Shown here: positions 22,917 through 35,564 of the stretch, piece by piece
Numbering within the stretch: the stretch's first letter is position 1
Layout of the letters: every line of letters starts with the position of its first letter
DNA from: an uncultured Clostridia bacterium
GTDB taxonomy: Bacteria; Bacillota; Clostridia; Oscillospirales; Acutalibacteraceae
Direction: 5' to 3'
Assembly: GCA_944376655.1 (NCBI GenBank)
Contig: CALWDJ010000018.1
Location: 1-41,637, forward strand
Length of the DNA stretch: 41,637 nucleotides
Translations under genes and position numbers: made by a program
Notes under the pieces: generated by a model
Databases searched by the model: none
The model's input: the letters and a program-made list of their open reading frames with translations, nothing else
What the model was told of the DNA's origin: nothing

Positions 22917-23992
22917 AAAAACTTGTAACCGAGGACGGCGCGGTTTACACCGGTTACGGCTTCGGCTTTGACGGCGAGCGTGTGTGCGAGCTGGTTTTCA
23001 ACACATCGGTTGTAGGATATCAGGAAATAATTTCCGACCCGTCATACACCTATCAGGCGGTTGTTATGACTTATCCGCTCATAGGCAACTACGGCATAGC
23101 CGACGAGGACTACGAGACAAAGGTGCCGACAATAGGCGGACTTATCGTAAGGGAGTACAACGACCTGCCCTCAAACTTCCGCTACACAAAAACCCTCTCT
23201 GAGGTTATGGAGGAATACAGGATCCCCGGAATAGAGGGTATAGACACAAGAAAATTAGGAAGAAGCATAAGAGACTTAGGAAGCCGCCGCGGCATTATAA
23301 CCGATATTGACACTCCCGATGAAAAAGCGCTCCAAATAATAAAAGAGACCCCAGTGCCGCACGACGCCGTTTCAAAGGTAAGCTGCAAAAAGCGCTGGTA
23401 TTCAAGAACCGCAAACGCCCGTTTTAATGTGGTCGCTATCGACTGCGGAATAAAGCACAACATTATAAGAAGCCTTAACGCGCGCGGCTGTAACGTGACC
23501 GTAATGCCCTACAACACCTCGGCGGAGGACGTTATTAAATGCAAGCCGGACGGTATTTTCTTATCAAACGGACCGGGAGACCCCGAGGACGTAACGCCGG
23601 TAATTGAGCTTGTAAGACAGCTTAAGGGCAAATACCCGATATTCGGCATATGTCTCGGTCATCAGATGATTTCACTCGCTTTAGGCGCCGAAACCTACAA
23701 GCTGAAATTCGGTCACAGAGGCGGAAACCACCCGGTAAAGAACCTTGAGACCGGAAAGATTGAAATTACCTCGCAGAACCACAGCTACGCGGTAAGAGAG
23801 GAAAGCCTTAAAGGCACCGGACTTACCGTTACGCACAAAAACATACTTGACAACACGGTGGAGGGTGTAAAGGACGAAAAGGATATGATATTCTCCGTTC
23901 AGTACCACCCCGAAAGCGCGCCCGGTCCGCAGGACAGCGCCTATCTGTTCGACCAGTTTATCAGCCTGATGGAGGGGAAAGAAAATGCCTAA
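22898..23992 (+). CDS. carA: Carbamoyl-phosphate synthase, small (glutaminase) subunit
   Basis: The 364-residue subunit releases ammonia from glutamine and passes it to CarB. The N-terminal CarA domain shows [10 protein letters not shown] and [18 protein letters not shown]; the class I amidotransferase domain carries the nucleophile in [16 protein letters not shown], and the His-Glu dyad in [15 protein letters not shown] lies nine bases upstream. It overlaps pyrC by 19 nt and carB by 8 nt, consistent with coupled translation of a two-subunit enzyme. Confidence 0.97.
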
Positions 23993-26900
23993 AAGAACCG
24001 ACCTTAAAAAGATACTTGTAATAGGCTCCGGCCCTATCGTAATAGGTCAGGCGGCGGAGTTTGACTATGCCGGAACGCAGGCGTGCCTTGCGCTTAAAGA
24101 GGAGGGCTACGAGGTAGTGCTCTGCAACTCGAACCCCGCCACGATAATGACCGACACTACTGTTGCGGACAAGGTTTATATGGAGCCTTTAAACCTTGAA
24201 TATCTCGCAAAGGTTATACGCTACGAGCGCCCCGACGCTATTGTGCCCGGAATAGGCGGTCAGACCGGACTCAACCTTGCTATGCAGCTTGAGAAAAAAG
24301 GCGTTCTGCGTGAATGTAATGTGGAGCTGTTAGGTACATCAAGCCGCAGTATAGAGCGCGCCGAGGACAGAGAACTTTTTAAAGAGCTTTGCGAGGAAAT
24401 AGGCGAGCCGGTGCTGCCCTCTATAATCGCCGAGAGCATGGAAGCCGGACTTGACGCCGCCGAAAAAATAGGCTACCCTGTCGTACTGCGCCCTGCATTT
24501 ACTTTAGGCGGCACGGGCGGCGGCTTTGCCGACAACGCCGAGGAATGTGCCGAAATTCTGCGCGGCGCGCTTGAGTTATCCCCTGTTCATCAGGTGCTTG
24601 TGGAAAAAAGCATAAAGGGATACAAGGAAATAGAATACGAGGTAATGCGTGACGCCAACGACACCGCCATTACCATATGCAATATGGAAAACATCGACCC
24701 GGTGGGAATACACACAGGCGACTCGATAGTGGTATGCCCCTCACAGACCCTTACCAACAAGGAATACCATATGCTGCGTGACAGCGCGCTTAAAATAATC
24801 CGCGCCCTTAAAATAGAGGGCGGCTGCAACGTTCAGTTCGCGCTTGACCCGCTTTCCTTTAATTACTATCTCATAGAGGTAAACCCCCGTGTTTCGCGTT
24901 CGTCGGCGTTAGCCTCAAAGGCGAGCGGCTACCCGATAGCGAGGGTATCGGCGAAAATATCGGTCGGCATGCACCTTGACGAGATTATGCTCGCCAACAC
25001 TCCGGCGTCTTTTGAGCCGGCGCTTGACTATGTTGTTTCAAAAATGCCCCGTTTCCCGTTTGACAAGTTTTCATCTGCGAACAACAAGCTCTCCACCCAG
25101 ATGAAAGCGACCGGCGAGGTAATGAGCATAGGCAGAACGATTGAGGAAAGCCTTTTAAAGGCGGCACGCTCGCTTGAAATAGGCATAAACCACCTTTATA
25201 TGAAAAAGTTTGACAGCTTTTCCGAGGAAGAGCTTTTAAGCTACATTGCCGACGGCACCGACGACCGCATATGCGCCGTAACCGAGCTTCTGCGCCGTAA
25301 TACCGATATGGGTCTTATATACGACCGGACAAAAATCGATATGCTTTTCCTTGAAAAGATAAAGAATATCGTGCGTATGGAAAGAAAGCTCGCCGGAAAC
25401 AAGGGCGACACCGAACTTTTGTATCAGGCAAAGAAAATGGGCTTTTCGGACGACTTTATAGGCAAGCTGTGGGGTATGACCGGCAAGGACATTTATAATA
25501 TACGGTGTGAGAAAAATATGTTCCCGGTCTACAAAATGATAGACTCCTGCGCCTCCGAGTTTGAAAGCTATATCCCCTATTTCTACTCAACCTACGAGGA
25601 AGAAAACGAATCGGTGGTATCCGATAAGAAGAAAATAATCGTTTTAGGCTCAGGTCCTATCAGAATAGGTCAGGGTGTGGAGTTTGACTATTCAACGGTA
25701 CACGCCGTAACCACAATCAAAAAATCCGGTTTTGAGGCTATAATCATAAACAACAACCCCGAAACCGTCTCGACCGACTACACCTGCTCTGACAAGCTGT
25801 ATTTCGAGCCGCTCTGCACCGAGGACGTTATGAACATTATCCACCTTGAAAACCCGATAGGTGTAATAGCGTCTTTAGGCGGTCAGACCGCTATCAATCT
25901 TTCAGACAGTCTGCACGACCGCGGCGTTAAGATAATCGGCACCGACTGCGACGCTATCGACCGCGCAGAAAACAGGGATTTATTTGAAAAGGTGCTCAAA
26001 GAGCTTGACATTCCGCAGCCTCGCGGACAGGCGGTAACAAAAATTGAGGACGGCGTCAAAGCGGCGGCGGAAATAGGCTATCCGGTGCTTGTACGCCCGT
26101 CGTTCGTGCTGGGCGGCAGGGCGATGCAGATAGTCGCCGATGAAAAACAGCTCCGCAGGTATCTGCGCACCGCCGTTGAGATAGACGAGGACAAGCCGGT
26201 GCTTGTTGATAAGTACATCTCCGGCAAGGAGGTAGAGGTTGACGCGATATGCGACGGCACCGACGTTTTCGTGCCCGGCATAATGGAGCTTGTTGAGCGC
26301 ACCGGAATACACAGCGGCGACTCAATAAGCGTTTACCCGACCTTCAGCATAAGCGAAAAAACCAAGGAAACCATACTTGACTACACTAAAAAGCTGGGGC
26401 TCGGCATCGGCATTGTGGGACTTTACAACATACAGTTTATAGTCGATAAAGACGAAAACGTATTTATAATCGAGGTAAATCCCCGCTCGTCAAGAACAGT
26501 CCCCTTCCTCTCAAAGGCGACGGGTTACAGTCTTGCCGACATAGCTACCCTTGTAATACTCGGAAAGTCACTTAAGGAGCAGGGCTTTGATAAAATATAT
26601 CCGGCGGAGAAAAAGCGCTGGTATGTAAAGGCTCCGGCGTTCTCGTTCTCAAAGCTTAGAGGACTTGACGCCTACCTCTCGCCCGAAATGAAGTCTACCG
26701 GAGAGGCGATAGGCTACGACGACAGGCTGACAAGGGCGCTTTACAAGGCGCTTAAGGCAAGCGGTATGAATGTTACGAACTACGGCACGGTACTTGCCAC
26801 GATAGCCGACAAGGACAAGGAGGAGGCTCTGCCCCTTATCCGCCGTTTCTACAATATGGGCTTTAACATTCAGGCGACCGAGGGTACGGCTAAATTTTTA

Positions 26901-27164
26901 AAGGAAAACGGTATACGCACCCACGCGGTTAAGAAGATAAGCGACGGCAGCCGTGAAATTCCCGACGCCATAAGGCAGGGCTATGTTACCTATGTTATCA
27001 ACACAAGGGACATAAGCTCGCCCGACGGTATAACCGACGGCCACGAGATACGCCGCTGCGCCGTTGAGAACAACGTCACGATGTTCACATCGCTCGACAC
27101 GGTTGAGGTGCTTTTATCGGTGCTTGAGGAAACCACCCTCGGCATCTCCACCATTGACGCGTAA
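23985..27164 (+). CDS. carB: Carbamoyl-phosphate synthase, large subunit
   Basis: This 1059-residue subunit makes carbamoyl phosphate from bicarbonate, ammonia and two ATP. It has the duplicated ATP-grasp layout: the first half opens with [20 protein letters not shown] and the second repeats it as [20 protein letters not shown] near 555-575. The last 150 residues are the allosteric MGS-like domain. Length is full. The single carAB pair in this operon probably serves pyrimidine synthesis; whether an arginine-specific pair exists elsewhere cannot be seen. Confidence 0.98.
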
Positions 27165-29519: not shown

Positions 29520-30164
29520 ATGGATACCAAAAGACTTATAGCAAGCGACCTTTTAAAAATAAAGGCGGTTTTCTTCCGCCCCGAGGAGCCTTTTACATGG
29601 GCGAGCGGCATTAAAAGTCCGGTTTACTGCGACAACCGGCTTACCCTTACAGCTCCCGAAGTGAGAAACGACGTTGAGCAAAGCCTTGCCAAAGTGGTAA
29701 AGGAAAATTATCCGGACGCTGAAGTGCTTATGGGCACATCAACCGCCGGAATCGCCCACGCCGCGATAACCGCGCATCTGCTTAATATGCCTATGGGATA
29801 TGTCCGTTCGGGCAACAAGGACCACGGCAGACAGAACCGCATTGAGGGCAAACTCGAAAAGGGTCAGAAAGTAGTTATCATAGAAGACCTTATCTCTACC
29901 GGCGGCAGCGTTATCGAGGTTGCGGAGGCTCTGCGTGATGCAGGCGCCGAGGTTTTGGGAATTGCCTCAATATTCACCTACGGAATGCAGAAGGGGCTTG
30001 ACCGCTTGGCAGCGGCAAACCTTAAAAATATAAGCCTTACCGATTTTGACTGCATAGCCGAGGTAGCGGCGGAGAACGGCTATATAAAGCCGGAGGATAT
30101 AAAGCGGCTTATAGCGTTCAGAAACAACCCGTCAGACGAAAGCTGGATAGGTGCGTCGAAATGA
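29520..30164 (+). CDS. pyrE: Orotate phosphoribosyltransferase
   Basis: The 214-residue enzyme joins orotate to PRPP to form OMP. The PRPP loop appears as [13 protein letters not shown] and the catalytic flexible loop with Lys residues as [31 protein letters not shown] near the N-terminus is typical. It follows pyrF after 12 nt with AAGGAG ahead, and overlaps pyrB by 4 nt. Confidence 0.96.
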
Positions 30165-31072
30165 GAAGCCTTATAGATATTCTTGAGATTAATACAGACG
30201 AGCTTGAACAGCTTATAAAAACCGCCAACGATATTATAGAAAATCCGGCGAAATACAGCGAGAAATGCAAAGGCAAAAAGCTCGCCACCCTGTTTTTCGA
30301 GCCGTCCACAAGAACAAGGCTCAGCTTTGAGGCGGCTATGTATGAGCTTGGCGGAAATGTAATAGGCTTTTCCGAGGCGCAGAGCTCTTCAGCCTCAAAG
30401 GGGGAGAGCGTGGCGGACACCGCTAAAGTAATATCCTGCTATGCCGATATTATAGCCATGCGCCACCCGAAAGAGGGCGCGCCGCTTGTGGCGGCGATGA
30501 ACGCGGGCGTTCCGGTGATAAACGCCGGTGACGGCGGACACAACCACCCCACCCAGACCCTTGCCGACCTGCTTACGATTTACCGTGAGAAGGGCGGCTT
30601 TGAGAACCTGACAGTCGGTCTTTGCGGCGACCTTAAATTCGGCAGAACGGTACATTCGCTTATAGCCGCGCTGTCCCGCTATACGGGTGTAAAATTCGTG
30701 CTTATCTCGCCGCAGGAGTTAAAGCTGCCCGGCTATGTAAAGCAGACGCTTGACGACAAGGGTATCCCCTACACCGAAACGACAAGCCTTGAGGAGCCTA
30801 TGCCGCAGCTTGATATTCTCTATATGACAAGGGTACAGAGAGAGCGTTTCTTCAACGAGGAGGATTATCTCCGGCTCAAAGACAGCTATATATTAACTCC
30901 CGAAAAGCTCAAAAACGCGCGTGCTGATATGTGCGTGCTTCACCCCCTGCCGAGGGTCAACGAAATAAGCGTCGCGGTGGATAATGACCCCCGTGCCTGC
31001 TATTTCAAGCAGGTGCTTTACGGCAAATATATGAGAATGGCGCTTATTTTAATGCTGCTGGAGGTGGAATAA
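30161..31072 (+). CDS. pyrB: Aspartate carbamoyltransferase, catalytic subunit
   Basis: The 303-residue enzyme transfers the carbamoyl group to aspartate. [13 protein letters not shown] binds carbamoyl phosphate, [10 protein letters not shown] and [10 protein letters not shown] bind substrate and aspartate. The chain length and the adjoining pyrI point to the large regulated holoenzyme (catalytic trimers with regulatory dimers), unlike the unregulated Bacillus enzyme. Its ATG overlaps the pyrE stop codon. Confidence 0.97.
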
Positions 31073-31489
31073 ATGAATATTGATTCCATAAAGAACGGAA
31101 TAGTGATAGACCACATTACCGCCGGACAGGGTATGCGGATTTACAATCTTTTGGGGCTTGATTCGCTCGACTGCTCGGTGGCGCTTATAAAAAATGTTTC
31201 CAGCCGCAAAATGGGCAAAAAGGATATTATCAAAATAGATTCAGATTTTGATGTTGATACCGATATTTTAGGCTATGTCGACCCCGATGTGACGGTCAAT
31301 ATCATAAAGGACGGCAAAACGGTCGAGAAAAAGAGTATAGCCCTGCCCGAAAAGCTGACCGGCGTGCTGACCTGTAAAAATCCGCGCTGCATTTCGGCGA
31401 CCGAGCAGGAGCTGCCCCAGATTTTTAAATTAACCGACCGCGCCCGCAGGATCTACCGCTGCATATACTGCGAGACAAAGGCGAAATAG
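31073..31489 (+). CDS. pyrI: Aspartate carbamoyltransferase, regulatory subunit
   Basis: The 138-residue chain has the nucleotide-binding N-terminal domain (GIVIDHITAGQGMRIYNLLG) and a C-terminal zinc domain with four cysteines (TCKNPRCISATEQ and YRCIYCETKAK) that docks to PyrB. It should give allosteric feedback by CTP and stimulation by ATP. The gene starts directly after the pyrB stop codon. It is present in some Clostridia but absent from Bacillus. Confidence 0.96.
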   Translation: MNIDSIKNGIVIDHITAGQGMRIYNLLGLDSLDCSVALIKNVSSRKMGKKDIIKIDSDFDVDTDILGYVDPDVTVNIIKDGKTVEKKSIALPEKLTGVLTCKNPRCISATEQELPQIFKLTDRARRIYRCIYCETKAK

Positions 31490-32234: not shown

Positions 32235-32272
32235 CGCGTATCCGCACTCAAAAATACGGATACGCGTTTTTT
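32235..32272. terminator. Bidirectional terminator, GCGTATCC hairpin copy 1
   Basis: CGCGTATCCG and CGGATACGCG pair around a 12-nt loop, with a T-run on the plus strand and A-runs on the other side. It separates the convergent hypothetical gene and methyltransferase gene. The same hairpin recurs at 33301-33331 and 33608-33639. Confidence 0.85.
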
Positions 32273-32283
32273 AAAAATTATTT

Positions 32284-33027
32284 TTATTTTTTAATGCCTT
32301 TATAAATATAGTAAGGCTTTGAATATAAATAAGTACCTGACTTATGCGCTTCTGTCAGGTTTTTGATAAATTCATTGTATTCTTCCTTGGAAATTACACC
32401 TATATTTTCATTGGTCAGCCAGCCGATATGCTTGCTGAATTCATATCCGAATTTTCCTTCTGTAAATTCGGTTTCGACCACGCTGTAAATAATTACGCTG
32501 CTCTCGAAAAATCCGGAATTGTGGAAAACTCCGTAGGTCCTTCTGCCCATCCAGCTGTCAATATCGTCCATCCAGCTCTGCTTTGTGACCGCATACGCGT
32601 GTATCATTTTTGTAATAAGGTCTTTGTTTTCGCCGTTGTAAACAGTACTGTCAAAATCGGCGTTTACGCACAAAACCGTTCCGCCAGGTTTTAATATCCT
32701 GTTTATTTCCTTAACAAAATATGACTTATCGGTTATACACTCGAGCATGTCTTTAACCAAAACAAAATCAAAAGTATTATCTTCAAATTTTAGCCGTCCG
32801 GCGCAATTCATTACTTTAAGCTCAACCGGCTGACTGTACGGAATAAGACCGAAATTTTTGTCGGTAACGTCTGCTCCTATCGCTTTTATTACTTTCCCCG
32901 GGAAAGTTTCAATTATACCGTTAAGATAACCTGCGTTTCTGCATCCAAGGTCAGCTATTACGGCATTCTGCGGCAAATCTATCATTTCATAAATTGTCTG
33001 ATTAAGTGATGAGTGTTTCATTTTCAT
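32284..33027 (-). CDS. Class I SAM-dependent methyltransferase under attenuator control
   Basis: The 247-residue protein has a Rossmann methyltransferase core: motif I VIADLGCRNAG near 23-33, FDFVLVKDMLECI near 86-98 and ILKPGGTVLCV near 111. The substrate is unknown. It is not an Erm-type rRNA methylase, since the N-(L/I)-P-(Y/F) motif is missing. The C-terminal half (SWMGRRTYGVF) is not from a family I can name. The ATG at 33027 is chosen because GGAGG lies eight bases upstream, directly after an intrinsic terminator; reading further upstream would run through the attenuator. Confidence 0.85.
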   Translation of the reverse strand: MKMKHSSLNQTIYEMIDLPQNAVIADLGCRNAGYLNGIIETFPGKVIKAIGADVTDKNFGLIPYSQPVELKVMNCAGRLKFEDNTFDFVLVKDMLECITDKSYFVKEINRILKPGGTVLCVNADFDSTVYNGENKDLITKMIHAYAVTKQSWMDDIDSWMGRRTYGVFHNSGFFESSVIIYSVVETEFTEGKFGYEFSKHIGWLTNENIGVISKEEYNEFIKNLTEAHKSGTYLYSKPYYIYKGIKK

Positions 33028-33040
33028 AATAATAACCTCC

Positions 33041-33217
33041 AAAAACAAAAATACTGTCAACAGCCGTGCGCCGTCAACAGTACAATAAAAAGAGGTTATT
33101 CTTTTCATCATTCTTTCAGGCACACAGCGAAACAAGCCTGCACCTGAAAAACAGATACAAGCTTCATCGTCTGCGTCGAATGATGATAAAAAACATACCT
33201 TTCCCTCCGAAAAAATT
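33041..33217 (-). promoter_or_regulatory. Transcription attenuator with leader peptide and competing hairpins
   Basis: On the minus strand, hairpin A (33114-33149, 12 bp with two wobble pairs) is followed by terminator hairpin B (33052-33082, 12 bp with wobble pairs) and TTTTTGTTTTT. The 3' arm of A, GCTGTGTGCC (33119-33128), can instead pair with GGCGCACGGC (33063-33072), which is part of B. This third fold would destroy the terminator. The leader-peptide stop codon lies 15 nt before hairpin A, so a stalled ribosome can mask its 5' arm. Confidence 0.82.
33164..33196 (-). CDS. Leader peptide MFFIIIRRRR
   Basis: The ten-codon reading frame has a very strong Shine-Dalgarno site (GGAGGG, six bases ahead of ATG) and lies about 20 nt after the predicted transcription start. 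It encodes two Phe, three Ile and four Arg. The Arg codons are CGA, CGC, AGA, CGA, so the amino acids, not one codon, seem to be kept. Arg-X-Arg is the known macrolide-dependent stalling motif. The peptide probably controls the attenuator and does not act in trans. Confidence 0.75.
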   Translation of the reverse strand: MFFIIIRRRR

Positions 33218-33223
33218 TCTAAT

Positions 33224-33252
33224 ATCTTATCATACAAATATATTTTTGTCAA
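33224..33252 (-). promoter_or_regulatory. Promoter of the attenuator-methyltransferase unit
   Basis: On the minus strand a perfect TTGACA (33247-33252) and TAAGAT (33224-33229) are 17 bp apart, just ahead of the leader peptide. Confidence 0.85.
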
Positions 33253-33300
33253 TACTCAGAGATTTAATGTTTATGTCAGACACAGCGCATATATAAAACC

Positions 33301-33331
33301 GTGTATCCGTACTCAAAAAATACGGATACGC
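33301..33331. repeat. GCGTATCC hairpin copy 2
   Basis: GTGTATCCGTA and TACGGATACGC form an 11-bp stem with one wobble pair. It is the same hairpin as at 32235 and 33608 but lacks a clear T-run. It lies just upstream of multi-hairpin copy C. Confidence 0.8.
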
Positions 33332-33607: not shown

Positions 33608-33639
33608 CGCGTATCCGCAAGCAAAAATACGGATACGCG
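33608..33639 (-). terminator. Terminator of htpG, GCGTATCC hairpin copy 3
   Basis: CGCGTATCCG and CGGATACGCG pair around a 12-nt loop, followed on the minus strand by TTTCATTTT. It lies 18 nt after the htpG stop codon. Confidence 0.75.
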
Positions 33640-33656: not shown

Positions 33657-35564
33657 TTATTTTACCATAAGCTCGCAGACAAGAGCGCTGTGCTCCGCCG
33701 GGTCGGGCACCGACCTGCCGCCTATCAGGCAGGCCTCGCCGTAAAGCAGTCTGGCGTACTTGCCGAGCAGCTCCTTATCACTGGCATAAAGCTCTTTGAG
33801 CTTTTCCGCTATCGGGTGGGAGGCGTTTATCTCAAGCACAAGCTGCGCCTTTACCTTGTTGTCGGCAGCTCCGGGCATTGAGTTTAATACCTTTTCCATC
33901 TCAAGGGATATTCCACCCTCGCTTGTAAGGCAGACAGGGTGGTTTTTCAGCTTGTTTGTGAACCTTACGGCGTTTATCTTGTCGCCTATGCTCTCCTTCA
34001 TAGCCTCAAACATATCTTTTGCGGCGGTGTTTTCCTCCTCAAGCGCCTTTTTCTCCTCCTCGCTGTCGAGGTTCAGATTATCGTCGCAGATGTTCATAAA
34101 CTTCTTGCCGTCGTATTCGCCCATCATTTTGAGCGCGAACTCGTCTACGTTCTCGGTAAGGTAAAGTATCTCATAGCCTTTGTCCTTTACCGCGTCGGTC
34201 TGGGGCAGCATTTCTATCTTCTCGTCGGTCTCGCCGCAGGCGTAGTAGATAATGTCCTGTCCTTCTTTCATACGTTCAACATATTCTTTTAATGTGACAT
34301 ACTTCTTTTCATTTGAAGAACGGAACAAAAGCAGATCCTTAAGTGTGTCCTTGTGCATACCGTAGTCGTTGTATACGCCGAATTTAAGCTGTATTCCGAA
34401 GGTCTTGAAAAATTCCTCGTAAGCCTCGCGCTCGTCCTTGAGCATTTTTTCAAGCTCGGACTTTATCTTCTTTTCAACCGTTTTGGCGATGAGCTTTAAC
34501 TGACCGTCGTGCTGGAGAGTCTCACGGGAAATATTGAGCGAGAGGTCCTCGCTGTCCACAAGTCCCTTTACAAAGCTGAAGTAGTCGGGTAGCAGGTCGG
34601 CGCACTTGTCCATTATCAGCACGCCCTTTGAGTAAAGCTGAAGTCCTTTTTCAAAATCCTTTGTGTAGTAATCGAACGGCGCGTGCTTCGGTATAAACAT
34701 CAGCGCCGAATAGGTCGCCTGACCCTCAGTCTTTGAGTGGATAACTCTTGCCGGATCCTCGTAATCGTAAAACTTATCCTTGTAAAAGCTGTTGTATTCC
34801 TCAGGCTTTATCTCGCTTTTCGCCTTTTTCCAGATAGGAATCATACTGTTGAGGGTGCGAAGCTCGGTAACGTCCCTGTACTCGGTTTCCTTGCTTTCCT
34901 CGCCCTCTTTTTTCTCCACCGGCTCTCTTGTGGTGAACTCCATTTTAATCGGGTGGCGGATATAGTCGGAATACTTCTTGACAAGAGCGCTTATGCGGTA
35001 CTGGTCAAGGTATTCATCATAATTCTCGTCGTCGGTTTTATCCTTTATATGGAGCGTAACCGTTGTTCCGACAGTTTCCTTTTCGCAGGGCTCGACAGTA
35101 TAGCCGTCAGCACCGCTTGACTCCCAGCGGAACGCCTCGTCAGAGCCGAACGCGCGGCTCTCGACCGTCACCCTGTCGCTCACCATAAACGCCGAATAAA
35201 AGCCTACGCCGAACTGACCTATTATATCCACGTTTTCCTTTTTCTCGTTTTCCTGCTTGAAAGCAAGCGAGCCGGATTTCGCTATCGTGCCGAGGTTCTT
35301 GTCAAGCTCCTCCTCGGTCATACCGCAGCCGTTGTCGATTATTCTTAAAATCCGGTTGTCCTTGTCTATTTCAATGCGGATTTCAAAATCGTCGGGCGCT
35401 ATCCCTACCGAATTGTCGGTAAGGGAGCGAAAATAGAGCTTGTCAAGCGCGTCACTGGCGTTTGAAATAAGCTCACGCAGGAAAATTTCCTTATGGGTAT
35501 AAATGGAATTTATCATCATATCCATAAGCTTTTTGGATTCTGATTTAAACTGTTTTGTACGCAT
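33657..35564 (-). CDS. htpG: Molecular chaperone HtpG (bacterial Hsp90)
   Basis: The 635-residue ATP-dependent chaperone has the GHKL ATP-binding domain (ELISNASDALDKL, DNGCGMTEEEL, IGQFGVGFYSAFMV) in the first 200 residues, then the middle domain with DSEDLSLNISRETLQ and a C-terminal dimerisation domain. Length is normal. AAGGTGATA precedes the ATG. A CIRCE box 100 nt upstream suggests HrcA control, unlike Bacillus htpG. Confidence 0.97.
   Translation of the reverse strand: MRTKQFKSESKKLMDMMINSIYTHKEIFLRELISNASDALDKLYFRSLTDNSVGIAPDDFEIRIEIDKDNRILRIIDNGCGMTEEELDKNLGTIAKSGSLAFKQENEKKENVDIIGQFGVGFYSAFMVSDRVTVESRAFGSDEAFRWESSGADGYTVEPCEKETVGTTVTLHIKDKTDDENYDEYLDQYRISALVKKYSDYIRHPIKMEFTTREPVEKKEGEESKETEYRDVTELRTLNSMIPIWKKAKSEIKPEEYNSFYKDKFYDYEDPARVIHSKTEGQATYSALMFIPKHAPFDYYTKDFEKGLQLYSKGVLIMDKCADLLPDYFSFVKGLVDSEDLSLNISRETLQHDGQLKLIAKTVEKKIKSELEKMLKDEREAYEEFFKTFGIQLKFGVYNDYGMHKDTLKDLLLFRSSNEKKYVTLKEYVERMKEGQDIIYYACGETDEKIEMLPQTDAVKDKGYEILYLTENVDEFALKMMGEYDGKKFMNICDDNLNLDSEEEKKALEEENTAAKDMFEAMKESIGDKINAVRFTNKLKNHPVCLTSEGGISLEMEKVLNSMPGAADNKVKAQLVLEINASHPIAEKLKELYASDKELLGKYARLLYGEACLIGGRSVPDPAEHSALVCELMVK

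What the first reader, a model, noticed from the sequence alone, without database searches (positions are those of the whole stretch)
33028..33252. Ribosome-mediated attenuator with leader peptide MFFIIIRRRR upstream of a non-Erm methyltransferase
Seen: a consensus promoter, a strong ribosome site, a ten-codon frame ending in four Arg codons, a 12-bp hairpin A, a 12-bp terminator hairpin B with a T-rich tail, and a 10-bp alternative pairing between the 3' arm of A and B. The parts have correct order and spacing for ribosome stalling at the peptide end to open the downstream gene. Known: Arg-X-Arg at the nascent-chain end is the macrolide-dependent arrest motif used by erm leaders. Inference: a macrolide-like drug, or arginine shortage, induces a methyltransferase outside the Erm family, so this may be an undescribed inducible resistance or tailoring system. 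Mixed Arg codons favour drug sensing over starvation for one tRNA.
Basis: partly seen in the sequence, partly recalled or inferred. Interest (0 to 1): 0.85.

Follow-up and report, generated by a model that had tools for sequence, protein, structure and literature searches.

The report
Arginine-codon switch guarding a methyltransferase
A short stretch of RNA in gut bacteria appears to sense when arginine cannot be loaded onto its tRNA and then switches on a gene, a methyltransferase here and a spare arginine-loading enzyme in other bacteria, which hints at an unknown poison of that enzyme.

Summary
On the minus strand a promoter, the leader MFFIIIRRRR, competing hairpins and a terminator precede a class I methyltransferase. 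A core pattern scanned over genome contigs gave 41 places; 40 are this element: 32 before a homologous methyltransferase (31 seen directly), 7 before arginyl-tRNA synthetase (argS), 1 undetermined. All seven argS genomes hold another argS; the element-borne copies are 55-75% identical to each other, 29-45% to the host copies compared, and one (E. porci) is broken. None of the seven matched the methyltransferase profile. 37 of 41 leaders start their run RRRR, with synonymous changes; the first Arg codon is always CGA, about 7% of Arg codons nearby. Four mutually exclusive helices are conserved; covariation is modest. I conclude: a ribosome-mediated, arginyl-tRNA-sensing transcription attenuator. 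The macrolide rival stays alive, because Bacillus tlrB (also non-Erm) has the similar leader MIIQFIRYR, and equilibrium folds of the window show little contrast between ribosome positions. That the outputs relieve ArgRS inhibition, the methyltransferase perhaps by inactivating an arginine antimetabolite, is inference. New variant of a known kind; no bench test.

The parts
33224..33252 (-). sigma-70-type promoter TTGACA-17-TAAGAT with TG before the -10
   Evidence: 10 of 12 consensus matches; sequence
33164..33196 (-). leader ORF MFFIIIRRRR* (Arg codons CGA CGC AGA CGA at 33178-33167), preceded by GGAGG
   Evidence: homologous leaders
33178..33186 (-). leader strand TCATCATTC, can pair with 33113-33105 after S3 (outer helix)
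   Evidence: fold, own partners better than swapped ones on average
33154..33162 (-). S1 (GCTTGTATC): pairs with S2; begins 16-17 nt after the first base of the first Arg codon in all 41 sequences
33136..33144 (-). S2 (GGTGCAGGC): pairs with S1 or with S3
33119..33128 (-). S3 (GCTGTGTGCC): pairs with S2 or with S4 (antiterminator)
33105..33113 (-). GAATGATGA, complement of the leader codons
33063..33072 (-). S4 (GGCGCACGGC), upper part of the terminator hairpin, 10-bp complement of S3
33041..33083 (-). intrinsic terminator: hairpin 33083-33051 and T-rich tail
   Evidence: 96.4% of cells paired, three pairs with changes on both sides
32284..33027 (-). class I SAM-dependent methyltransferase, 247 aa (P0001), SD GGAGG at 33040-33036
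32235..32266 (-). terminator-like palindrome CGCGTATCCG...CGGATACGCG after the methyltransferase gene

Best explanation
It is a ribosome-mediated transcription attenuator that senses shortage of charged arginyl-tRNA. With enough Arg-tRNA, the ribosome runs to the stop codon and covers S1; S2 then pairs with S3, the terminator forms and the gene stays off. With too little, the ribosome waits at the first Arg codons (an uncommon CGA leads the run). S1, which starts 16-17 nt further on, is then free and pairs with S2; S3 is left to pair with S4 and breaks the terminator, so the gene is read. Without a ribosome the outcome is uncertain: the leader codons can pair with the stretch after S3 beside an intact terminator (full fold), but folds cut at S4 favour this off state only in the argS group. 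Shown by computation: the parts, their conservation, modest covariation, and use of the same element before a second argS. Inferred: ribosome positions, signal, and purpose, which is to relieve inhibition of arginyl-tRNA synthetase, by a spare enzyme in some species and by a small-molecule-type methyltransferase here. The confidence is for the arginyl-tRNA-sensing attenuator; for the methyltransferase acting on an ArgRS-directed arginine antimetabolite I would give about 0.3.
For: Of 41 places found by the core pattern in genome contigs, 40 are the element: 7 before argS; 31 before the methyltransferase, seen directly; L049 also, by the contig of the same length in G813; L020 undetermined. All 7 argS genomes hold two argS matches of 250 bits or more. 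Five element-borne ArgRS are 55-75% identical to each other and 29-45% to the four host ArgRS-1 compared. In 61 genus genomes, all 7 strong elements are followed by the methyltransferase. RRRR opens the run in 37 of 41 leaders, with synonymous changes CGC/CGT and AGA/CGA. CGA is codon 1 in 41 of 41 and codon 4 in 39 of 41, yet 154 of 2361 and 27 of 351 Arg codons in mechanically called long ORFs of the two locus groups and 8 of 333 in 15 window ORFs. S3:S4 is 97.6% paired against 93.6% shuffled, 0 of 500 as high; terminator 96.4% against 94.4%, 0 of 500; S1:S2 and S2:S3 100%. In folds cut at S4, S3:S4 is highest with the ribosome at Arg1 or Arg2 in both groups.
Against: No experiment. In the methyltransferase group the cut folds differ weakly between ribosome positions (S3:S4 0.99 at Arg1, 0.88 at Arg4, 0.86 at stop, 0.74 without ribosome), and in the window hardly at all (0.95 without, 0.99-1.00 with): equilibrium alone would not switch it, folding order must. 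Covariation rests on few positions: the number of S3:S4 pairs changed on both sides (1) and of further pair types (8) is not above shuffles (500 and 150 of 500 as high); for the terminator 202 and 204 of 500, and one slid control (-3) has a higher covariation score (0.176 against 0.157). S1:S2 has no compensatory change. Four of 41 leaders lack RRRR at the run's start (RRKP, RRVR, RCLR, RRRQR). CGA could be kept partly by RNA pairing. The E. porci argS copy is broken. The window gene has no evident tie to arginine. The leader resembles the macrolide-sensing tlrB leader.
Confidence: 0.7

Rival explanations
1. Macrolide (or ketolide) sensing: the drug-bound ribosome arrests at R-X-R near the peptide end and induces a resistance methyltransferase, as for tlrB of Bacillus subtilis.
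For: [RK]-X-[RK] is present in 40 of 41 leaders. The tlrB leader MIIQFIRYR has Arg at positions 7 and 9, as MFFIIIRRRR does, and also controls a non-Erm methyltransferase by transcription attenuation (PMC6851288).
Against: Seven copies stand before argS, for which no macrolide role is known to me (recalled). The genes seen next to the element are homologues of P0001 or argS, none of them an erm, tlrB, mef, msr or ABC-F gene. The middle X and the fourth residue are also Arg, the fourth mostly in CGA codons, which an R-X-R arrest does not need. The methyltransferase matches no RlmA or Erm model in the lists shown.
Confidence: 0.15
2. General arginine homeostasis: the same arginyl-tRNA sensor, but for ordinary arginine starvation; methyltransferase and second ArgRS are accessory metabolic genes without any toxin. 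This rivals only the purpose given in the best explanation, not the sensor.
For: Classical leader attenuators sense starvation; a His leader in bacilli controls a second hisS copy and hisZ (PMC2965389, section 10).
Against: Patchy occurrence (7 of 61 genus genomes; 1 of 391 class genomes), a second ArgRS unlike the host's and no widely shared neighbour in the held DNA look more like an accessory protection gene than core metabolism. No arginine synthesis or uptake gene was seen directly behind the element.
Confidence: 0.35
3. Protection against toxins that destroy tRNA-Arg: stalling at CGA reports loss of the tRNA reading CGN codons, and the methyltransferase marks tRNA.
For: The run begins with CGA in 41 of 41 leaders; colicin D-type toxins cut tRNA-Arg (recalled).
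Against: A second ArgRS would not help against tRNA cleavage. The best fold and profile matches are mostly small-molecule or peptide methyltransferases, though class I folds are poor evidence of substrate.
Confidence: 0.05

Closest known systems
Histidine leader-peptide attenuator before hisS* and hisZ in bacilli (PMC2965389, section 10 read, passages)
   Same: Firmicutes leader ORF with a run of one amino acid's codons; one attenuator family shared by a duplicate aminoacyl-tRNA synthetase and another gene.
   Different: Arg instead of His; the other gene here is a methyltransferase without a known link to the amino acid, whereas hisZ is a histidine gene and a hisS paralogue.
tlrB (yxjB) leader MIIQFIRYR of Bacillus subtilis (PMC6851288, abstract and passages)
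   Same: Leader of nearly equal length, hydrophobic then Arg-ending, in a transcription attenuator before a non-Erm methyltransferase.
   Different: TlrB is RlmA(II), an rRNA enzyme; this protein reached no RlmA model. No overlapping antiterminator was identified for tlrB; here one is conserved. Relatives of this element precede argS.
mef/mel and erm leader attenuators (PMC4335068, search listing and abstract start only; leader sequences recalled)
   Same: R-X-R near the end of a short leader; hairpin switch.
   Different: Outputs here are not efflux, Erm or ABC-F; four or five Arg codons.
orf34 arginine-codon leader of Salmonella speF (PMC6386406, search listing and abstract start only; the name orf34 is recalled)
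   Same: Arginine level read through a leader region with arginine codons.
   Different: Controls polyamine synthesis (from the abstract start).

Membership tests
Amino-acid leader-peptide attenuators (his/trp/hisS* kind) | short ORF with an SD and a run of codons for one amino acid | tested here: met
   MFFIIIRRRR*; RRRR at the run's start in 37 of 41 leaders, mean 4.4 Arg
Amino-acid leader-peptide attenuators (his/trp/hisS* kind) | mutually exclusive helices ending in an intrinsic terminator | tested here: met
   S1:S2, S2:S3, S3:S4 and terminator paired in 96-100% of cells of 34 sequences
Amino-acid leader-peptide attenuators (his/trp/hisS* kind) | the controlled gene serves the same amino acid | tested here: inconclusive
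   met in 7 of 39 loci with an assigned gene (argS); the other 32 and the window have a methyltransferase of unknown substrate
Amino-acid leader-peptide attenuators (his/trp/hisS* kind) | ribosome position switches the helices | tested here: inconclusive
   clear contrast in model folds of the argS group, weak in the methyltransferase group, nearly none in the window
Amino-acid leader-peptide attenuators (his/trp/hisS* kind) | read-through rises when the cognate tRNA is uncharged | not testable with these tools
   needs a reporter or term-seq
Macrolide-sensing leaders (erm, mef, tlrB kind) | R/K-X-R/K arrest motif in the leader | tested here: met
   40 of 41 leaders
Macrolide-sensing leaders (erm, mef, tlrB kind) | controls a macrolide or ribosome-drug resistance gene | tested here: not met
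   outputs are argS or this methyltransferase, which reached no RlmA or Erm model; an unknown rRNA methyltransferase is not excluded
Macrolide-sensing leaders (erm, mef, tlrB kind) | drug-dependent ribosome arrest | not testable with these tools
   needs toeprinting
Erm rRNA adenine methyltransferases | match to the rRNA adenine dimethylase (RrnaAD) family | tested here: not met
   the 7 Pfam families at E up to 0.001 are generic (Methyltransf_11, Ubie_methyltran and others)
RlmA(I)/RlmA(II) rRNA guanine methyltransferases | match to an RlmA family model | tested here: not met
T-box or other Rfam RNA family | covariance-model match | tested here: not met
   no match at E up to 1 in 32980-33280; only a tRNA in the whole window at gathering scores

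The most novel reading that the evidence does not exclude
A transferable, inducible defence against inhibition of arginyl-tRNA synthetase: one RNA sensor that detects Arg-tRNA shortage and drives either of two interchangeable effectors, a foreign resistant ArgRS or a methyltransferase that inactivates the inhibitor (an arginine antimetabolite or an unknown antibiotic met in the ruminant gut).
Probability: 0.3. Interest if true: 0.87.

Novelty: new variant of a known kind. Interest (0 to 1): 0.72.

Why it matters
If true, it gives a nearly sequence-invariant RNA signature for finding genes that gut bacteria switch on when arginine charging fails. It would point to a natural ArgRS inhibitor; the passages on ArgRS that I saw in one review name no inhibitor of it (PMC7916415, passages). 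Its sister use before a second ArgRS gives an orphan methyltransferase family a testable function. [quoted passage not shown]

Tried and rejected
Considered and rejected or not counted: (1) Erm, RlmA and T-box membership. (2) Mobile-element carriage: no plasmid record matches the leader; three phage records match 26 bases at E 0.5, taken as chance. One weak plasmid match for the protein, 44% covered. The best ArgRS-2 plasmid match is 39.9% identical (12 of 37 records listed). No protein relative in viral contigs. (3) Conserved neighbour genes: within the held DNA (at most 8 kb, often cut) no other cluster is in more than 6 of 41 loci; an alpha/beta hydrolase, an APH-like kinase and an AraC regulator (named by eye) stand near the gene in a few loci, on either side. 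(4) Weak covariance-model matches L012, L013, L080-L082 and L092-L094, E 2e-4 to 8e-3, are not counted. L012 and L013 were only printed. The other six were looked at: none shows an Arg run before argS or this methyltransferase; L093 is followed by a different methyltransferase-like ORF without a meaningful match to P0001, and L094 has a short ORF with scattered Arg codons; both left open. (5) L033 (Hyphomicrobiales) and L014 (viral contig) match the pattern but lack the leader. (6) Pairing of the Arg codons with S3, seen in the window's minimum-energy fold, is weak and not clearly kept (own -5.3, swapped -4.6 kcal/mol; the methyltransferase leaders do better with S3 of the argS group, -6.8 against -5.6, with the segment error below). 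(7) A fixed-column test of the leader to post-S3 helix was not made, because its register differs between subgroups; I used swapped-partner duplex energies. In one search the leader segment was taken too far downstream in nine rows; one search is the corrected version. (8) In one search the script picked a wrong frame for L057 and L061; these two rows are not used. (9) 'No methyltransferase in argS genomes' (E up to 1e-10) has no positive control inside that call; the same profile rings. (10) Searches of more than 40 genomes with RNA models use stricter filters that lose weak matches, so rarity is of strong matches. (11) Third, weak PF00750 matches (19-26 bits) in G313, G427, G850 and G851 are not counted as argS. 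(12) Structure libraries do not single out a substrate; absence of Erm or RlmA from those lists is not used as evidence. (13) For print status: searches listed no paper that, from its title or the abstract start shown, describes an argS leader-peptide attenuator or an Arg-run leader before such a methyltransferase; (arginyl-tRNA synthetase, attenuator, leader peptide) found no paper. Lists are capped and the library lacks most subscription papers.

Full report
What is there. On the minus strand of the window, 33252 down to 32284, lie a good promoter, a leader ORF MFFIIIRRRR* at 33196-33164, a set of competing hairpins, an intrinsic terminator at 33083-33041 and a 247-aa methyltransferase. The 175-nt leader is far more stable than its shuffles (z -6.95). 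Two further helices were not mentioned: S1:S2, and one between the leader codons and the stretch after S3.

Conservation. Two close homologues in the genus (74 and 72% identical proteins) carry leaders MFSIIIRRVR and MFSIIIRRRRR and the same stems. A covariance model from these three, searched in 394 genomes of the order, gave two further strong matches in another family, both directly upstream of an arginyl-tRNA synthetase gene, and two weak ones not counted. A core DNA pattern scanned once over genome contigs (one genome for each of 84,980 species) returned 41 places. One (L033) has no leader and is chance. The other 40 have the leader. In 7 the next gene is argS (L028, L029, L035, L043, L045, L046, L047). 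In 31 it is seen to be a homologue of the window's methyltransferase: 27 complete ORFs, three cut by the end of the held DNA (L021, L023, L048), one visible only as its start (L026). L049 ends before its gene, but the contig of the same length in G813 has the methyltransferase right behind the element. L020 stays undetermined. Of the 40 record titles, 28 name a goat, sheep, cattle or deer gut sample; nearly all are uncultured Clostridia. One is the isolate Eisenbergiella porci (Lachnospiraceae).

Linkage and patchiness. In 61 genomes of the genus, 7 carry a strong match to the 41-sequence model R2, and 8 match the methyltransferase profile. All seven elements are followed by the gene; in G808 it runs off the contig end. 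The eighth match, in G822, is a C-terminal remnant of about 40 residues, with 550 bases upstream held but no more of the gene. Elsewhere strong matches are rare: only the window's own element in 391 class genomes, only its own gene in 197 order genomes, and 2 elements of 63 genomes in the family of G313, both before argS. No neighbouring gene is widely shared in the held DNA. The gene looks like a stand-alone unit.

The argS copies. All seven genomes with the element before argS hold two argS matches of 250 bits or more; the core pattern occurs at one place in each. Five element-borne ArgRS proteins were compared: they are 55-75% identical to each other and 29-45% to the four host ArgRS-1 compared (the fifth host copy was misread by the script and left out). 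The hosts include a Lachnospiraceae isolate and members of the window's order. An extra ArgRS of its own lineage therefore goes with this element. In six loci a relative aligns in one frame over all or nearly all its length; in E. porci the match falls into three pieces in three frames, with about 80 residues of the N-terminal part unmatched, so that copy is broken. Of 17 genomes with the methyltransferase version, 16 have one argS match, of a divergent type, and one (L052's genome) has an additional partial match at a contig edge. None of the 7 argS genomes matched the methyltransferase profile. The two outputs look like alternatives.

Signal. Over 41 leaders the run starts RRRR in 37, with synonymous changes in the second, third and fifth codons. 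The first Arg codon is CGA in 41 and the fourth codon is CGA in 39; the codon before the run is never Arg. CGA makes up 154 of 2361 Arg codons in mechanically called long ORFs of the methyltransferase loci and 27 of 351 in the argS loci. An uncommon codon opening the run, four or five Arg codons instead of R-X-R, and a second ArgRS as output fit sensing of arginyl-tRNA. S1 begins 16-17 nt after the first base of the first Arg codon in all 41. With a ribosome edge 15-16 nt from the P-site codon (figure from a toeprint passage in PMC6851288), a ribosome waiting for the first Arg-tRNA leaves S1 free, while one at the stop codon covers it. This gives the classical logic: stalled early, S1:S2 and S3:S4 form and the gene is read; finished, S2:S3 and the terminator form.

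Structure support. In 34 sequences (the window plus 33 loci not before argS), S3:S4 is paired in 97.6% of cells against 93.6% in shuffles (0 of 500 as high), with five standard pair types at one position; but only one pair has changes on both sides, no more than in shuffles. The terminator is paired in 96.4% against 94.4%, with three pairs changed on both sides, again not above shuffles (202 of 500), and one slid control has a higher covariation score. S2:S3 is 100% with one such pair. S1:S2 is 100% with none, and shuffles say nothing about it. Slid partners pair far less: at most 64% of cells for S3:S4, the terminator and S1:S2, and 68.5% for S2:S3. For the leader to post-S3 helix, own partners bind better than partners from the other group (-13.3 against -8.6 and -11.8 against -6.9 kcal/mol; over all swaps own is better in 76% and worse in 20%). 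Folds of the transcript cut at S4 give S3:S4 0.98-0.99 with the ribosome at Arg1 in both groups. Without a ribosome the values are 0.74 (methyltransferase) and 0.28 (argS), at Arg4 0.88 and 0.41, at stop 0.86 and 0.78. The direction is as expected, but the contrast is weak in the methyltransferase group and nearly absent in the window (0.95 to 1.00). There the mechanism needs S2:S3, or the leader helix, to form first and persist.

The methyltransferase. Pfam and NCBIfam give only generic class I families, all NCBIfam matches listed far below their cut-offs. Profile search and predicted structure (mean pLDDT 74.9) place it near phosphoethanolamine, small-molecule and peptide methyltransferases such as AtPMT2, LahSB, 3mgg, GtmA, TmtA and JHAMT, with TM-scores normalised by the query of 0.57 or less in the 50 rows listed. 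Class I folds are too alike for this to fix the substrate. The family keeps acidic and aromatic residues (W152, D157, W159, E185, E187), which could hold a guanidinium group; this is speculation.

What it does. The best-supported step is an arginyl-tRNA-sensing attenuator. The purpose is inferred. Shortage of Arg-tRNA calls up either a spare ArgRS or this methyltransferase, which makes sense if the usual cause is a compound that blocks ArgRS. A rumen review names indospicine, a forage-legume amino acid, as a competitive ArgRS inhibitor (PMC7590051, passage), so such exposures exist in ruminants. The macrolide reading deserves a test because the Bacillus subtilis tlrB leader MIIQFIRYR is strikingly similar and controls a non-Erm methyltransferase (PMC6851288). 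It does not explain argS.

Known kind. A His-codon leader shared by a second hisS copy and hisZ in bacilli (PMC2965389, section 10) is the nearest precedent. This is therefore a new variant of a known kind: a new amino acid, a new output, and occurrence in different families together with an extra synthetase. The literature searches listed no description of it (calls under Tried and rejected), within the limits of an open-access library.

Noticed in passing
32235-32266, 33303-33329, 33608-33639: Three copies of a palindromic hairpin GTATCCGTATTTTT...CGGATAC flank the methyltransferase unit on both sides. Only one more exact match exists in the genome (another contig); the control pattern gave none.
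   Followed up: partly
L093 (G332:C24:49528-52689), 1500-2539: Weak model match (E 0.002): a leader-like ORF ...MTANKVHMNMQQVQLVVMRVIYNAGDGLLPCFVRNALYS* and a hairpin with T-run stand right before a 288-aa methyltransferase-like ORF unrelated to P0001; perhaps another attenuator-controlled methyltransferase.
   Followed up: partly
L094 (G152:C6:9329-9492): A weak model match (E 0.004) with a short ORF MFKFCYKNRRGQRRVHIVNSTGLAVCA before a hairpin and a membrane-like ORF; possibly an unrelated leader attenuator.
   Followed up: no
L030, L034, L039, L054, L016: An alpha/beta hydrolase, an aminoglycoside-phosphotransferase-like kinase and an AraC-type regulator (named by eye), two or three together in four of these loci and the hydrolase alone in L016, lie near the methyltransferase on either side.
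   Followed up: no
L052 and its genome G861: Leader MFFIIVRCLR keeps the RNA stems but has lost most of the Arg run, and its genome has an extra partial argS match at a contig edge; perhaps a decaying or retuned copy.
   Followed up: no
L046 (Eisenbergiella porci), 391-1859: The element-borne argS copy is broken: matches to a relative lie in three frames and part of the N-terminal region is unmatched; the distance from element to gene is also longer than in the other loci.
   Followed up: partly
23985-27164, 30161-31489: On the plus strand lie pyrimidine genes: carbamoyl-phosphate synthase large chain, aspartate carbamoyltransferase and its regulatory chain. HtpG is at 33657-35564.
   Followed up: no
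genomes of the methyltransferase carriers (e.g. L062, L063, L064): Their argS matches Pfam PF00750 weakly (52-83 bits in 17 genomes, against 285-309 for the best argS of the 7 argS carriers), i.e. a divergent type of ArgRS.
   Followed up: no
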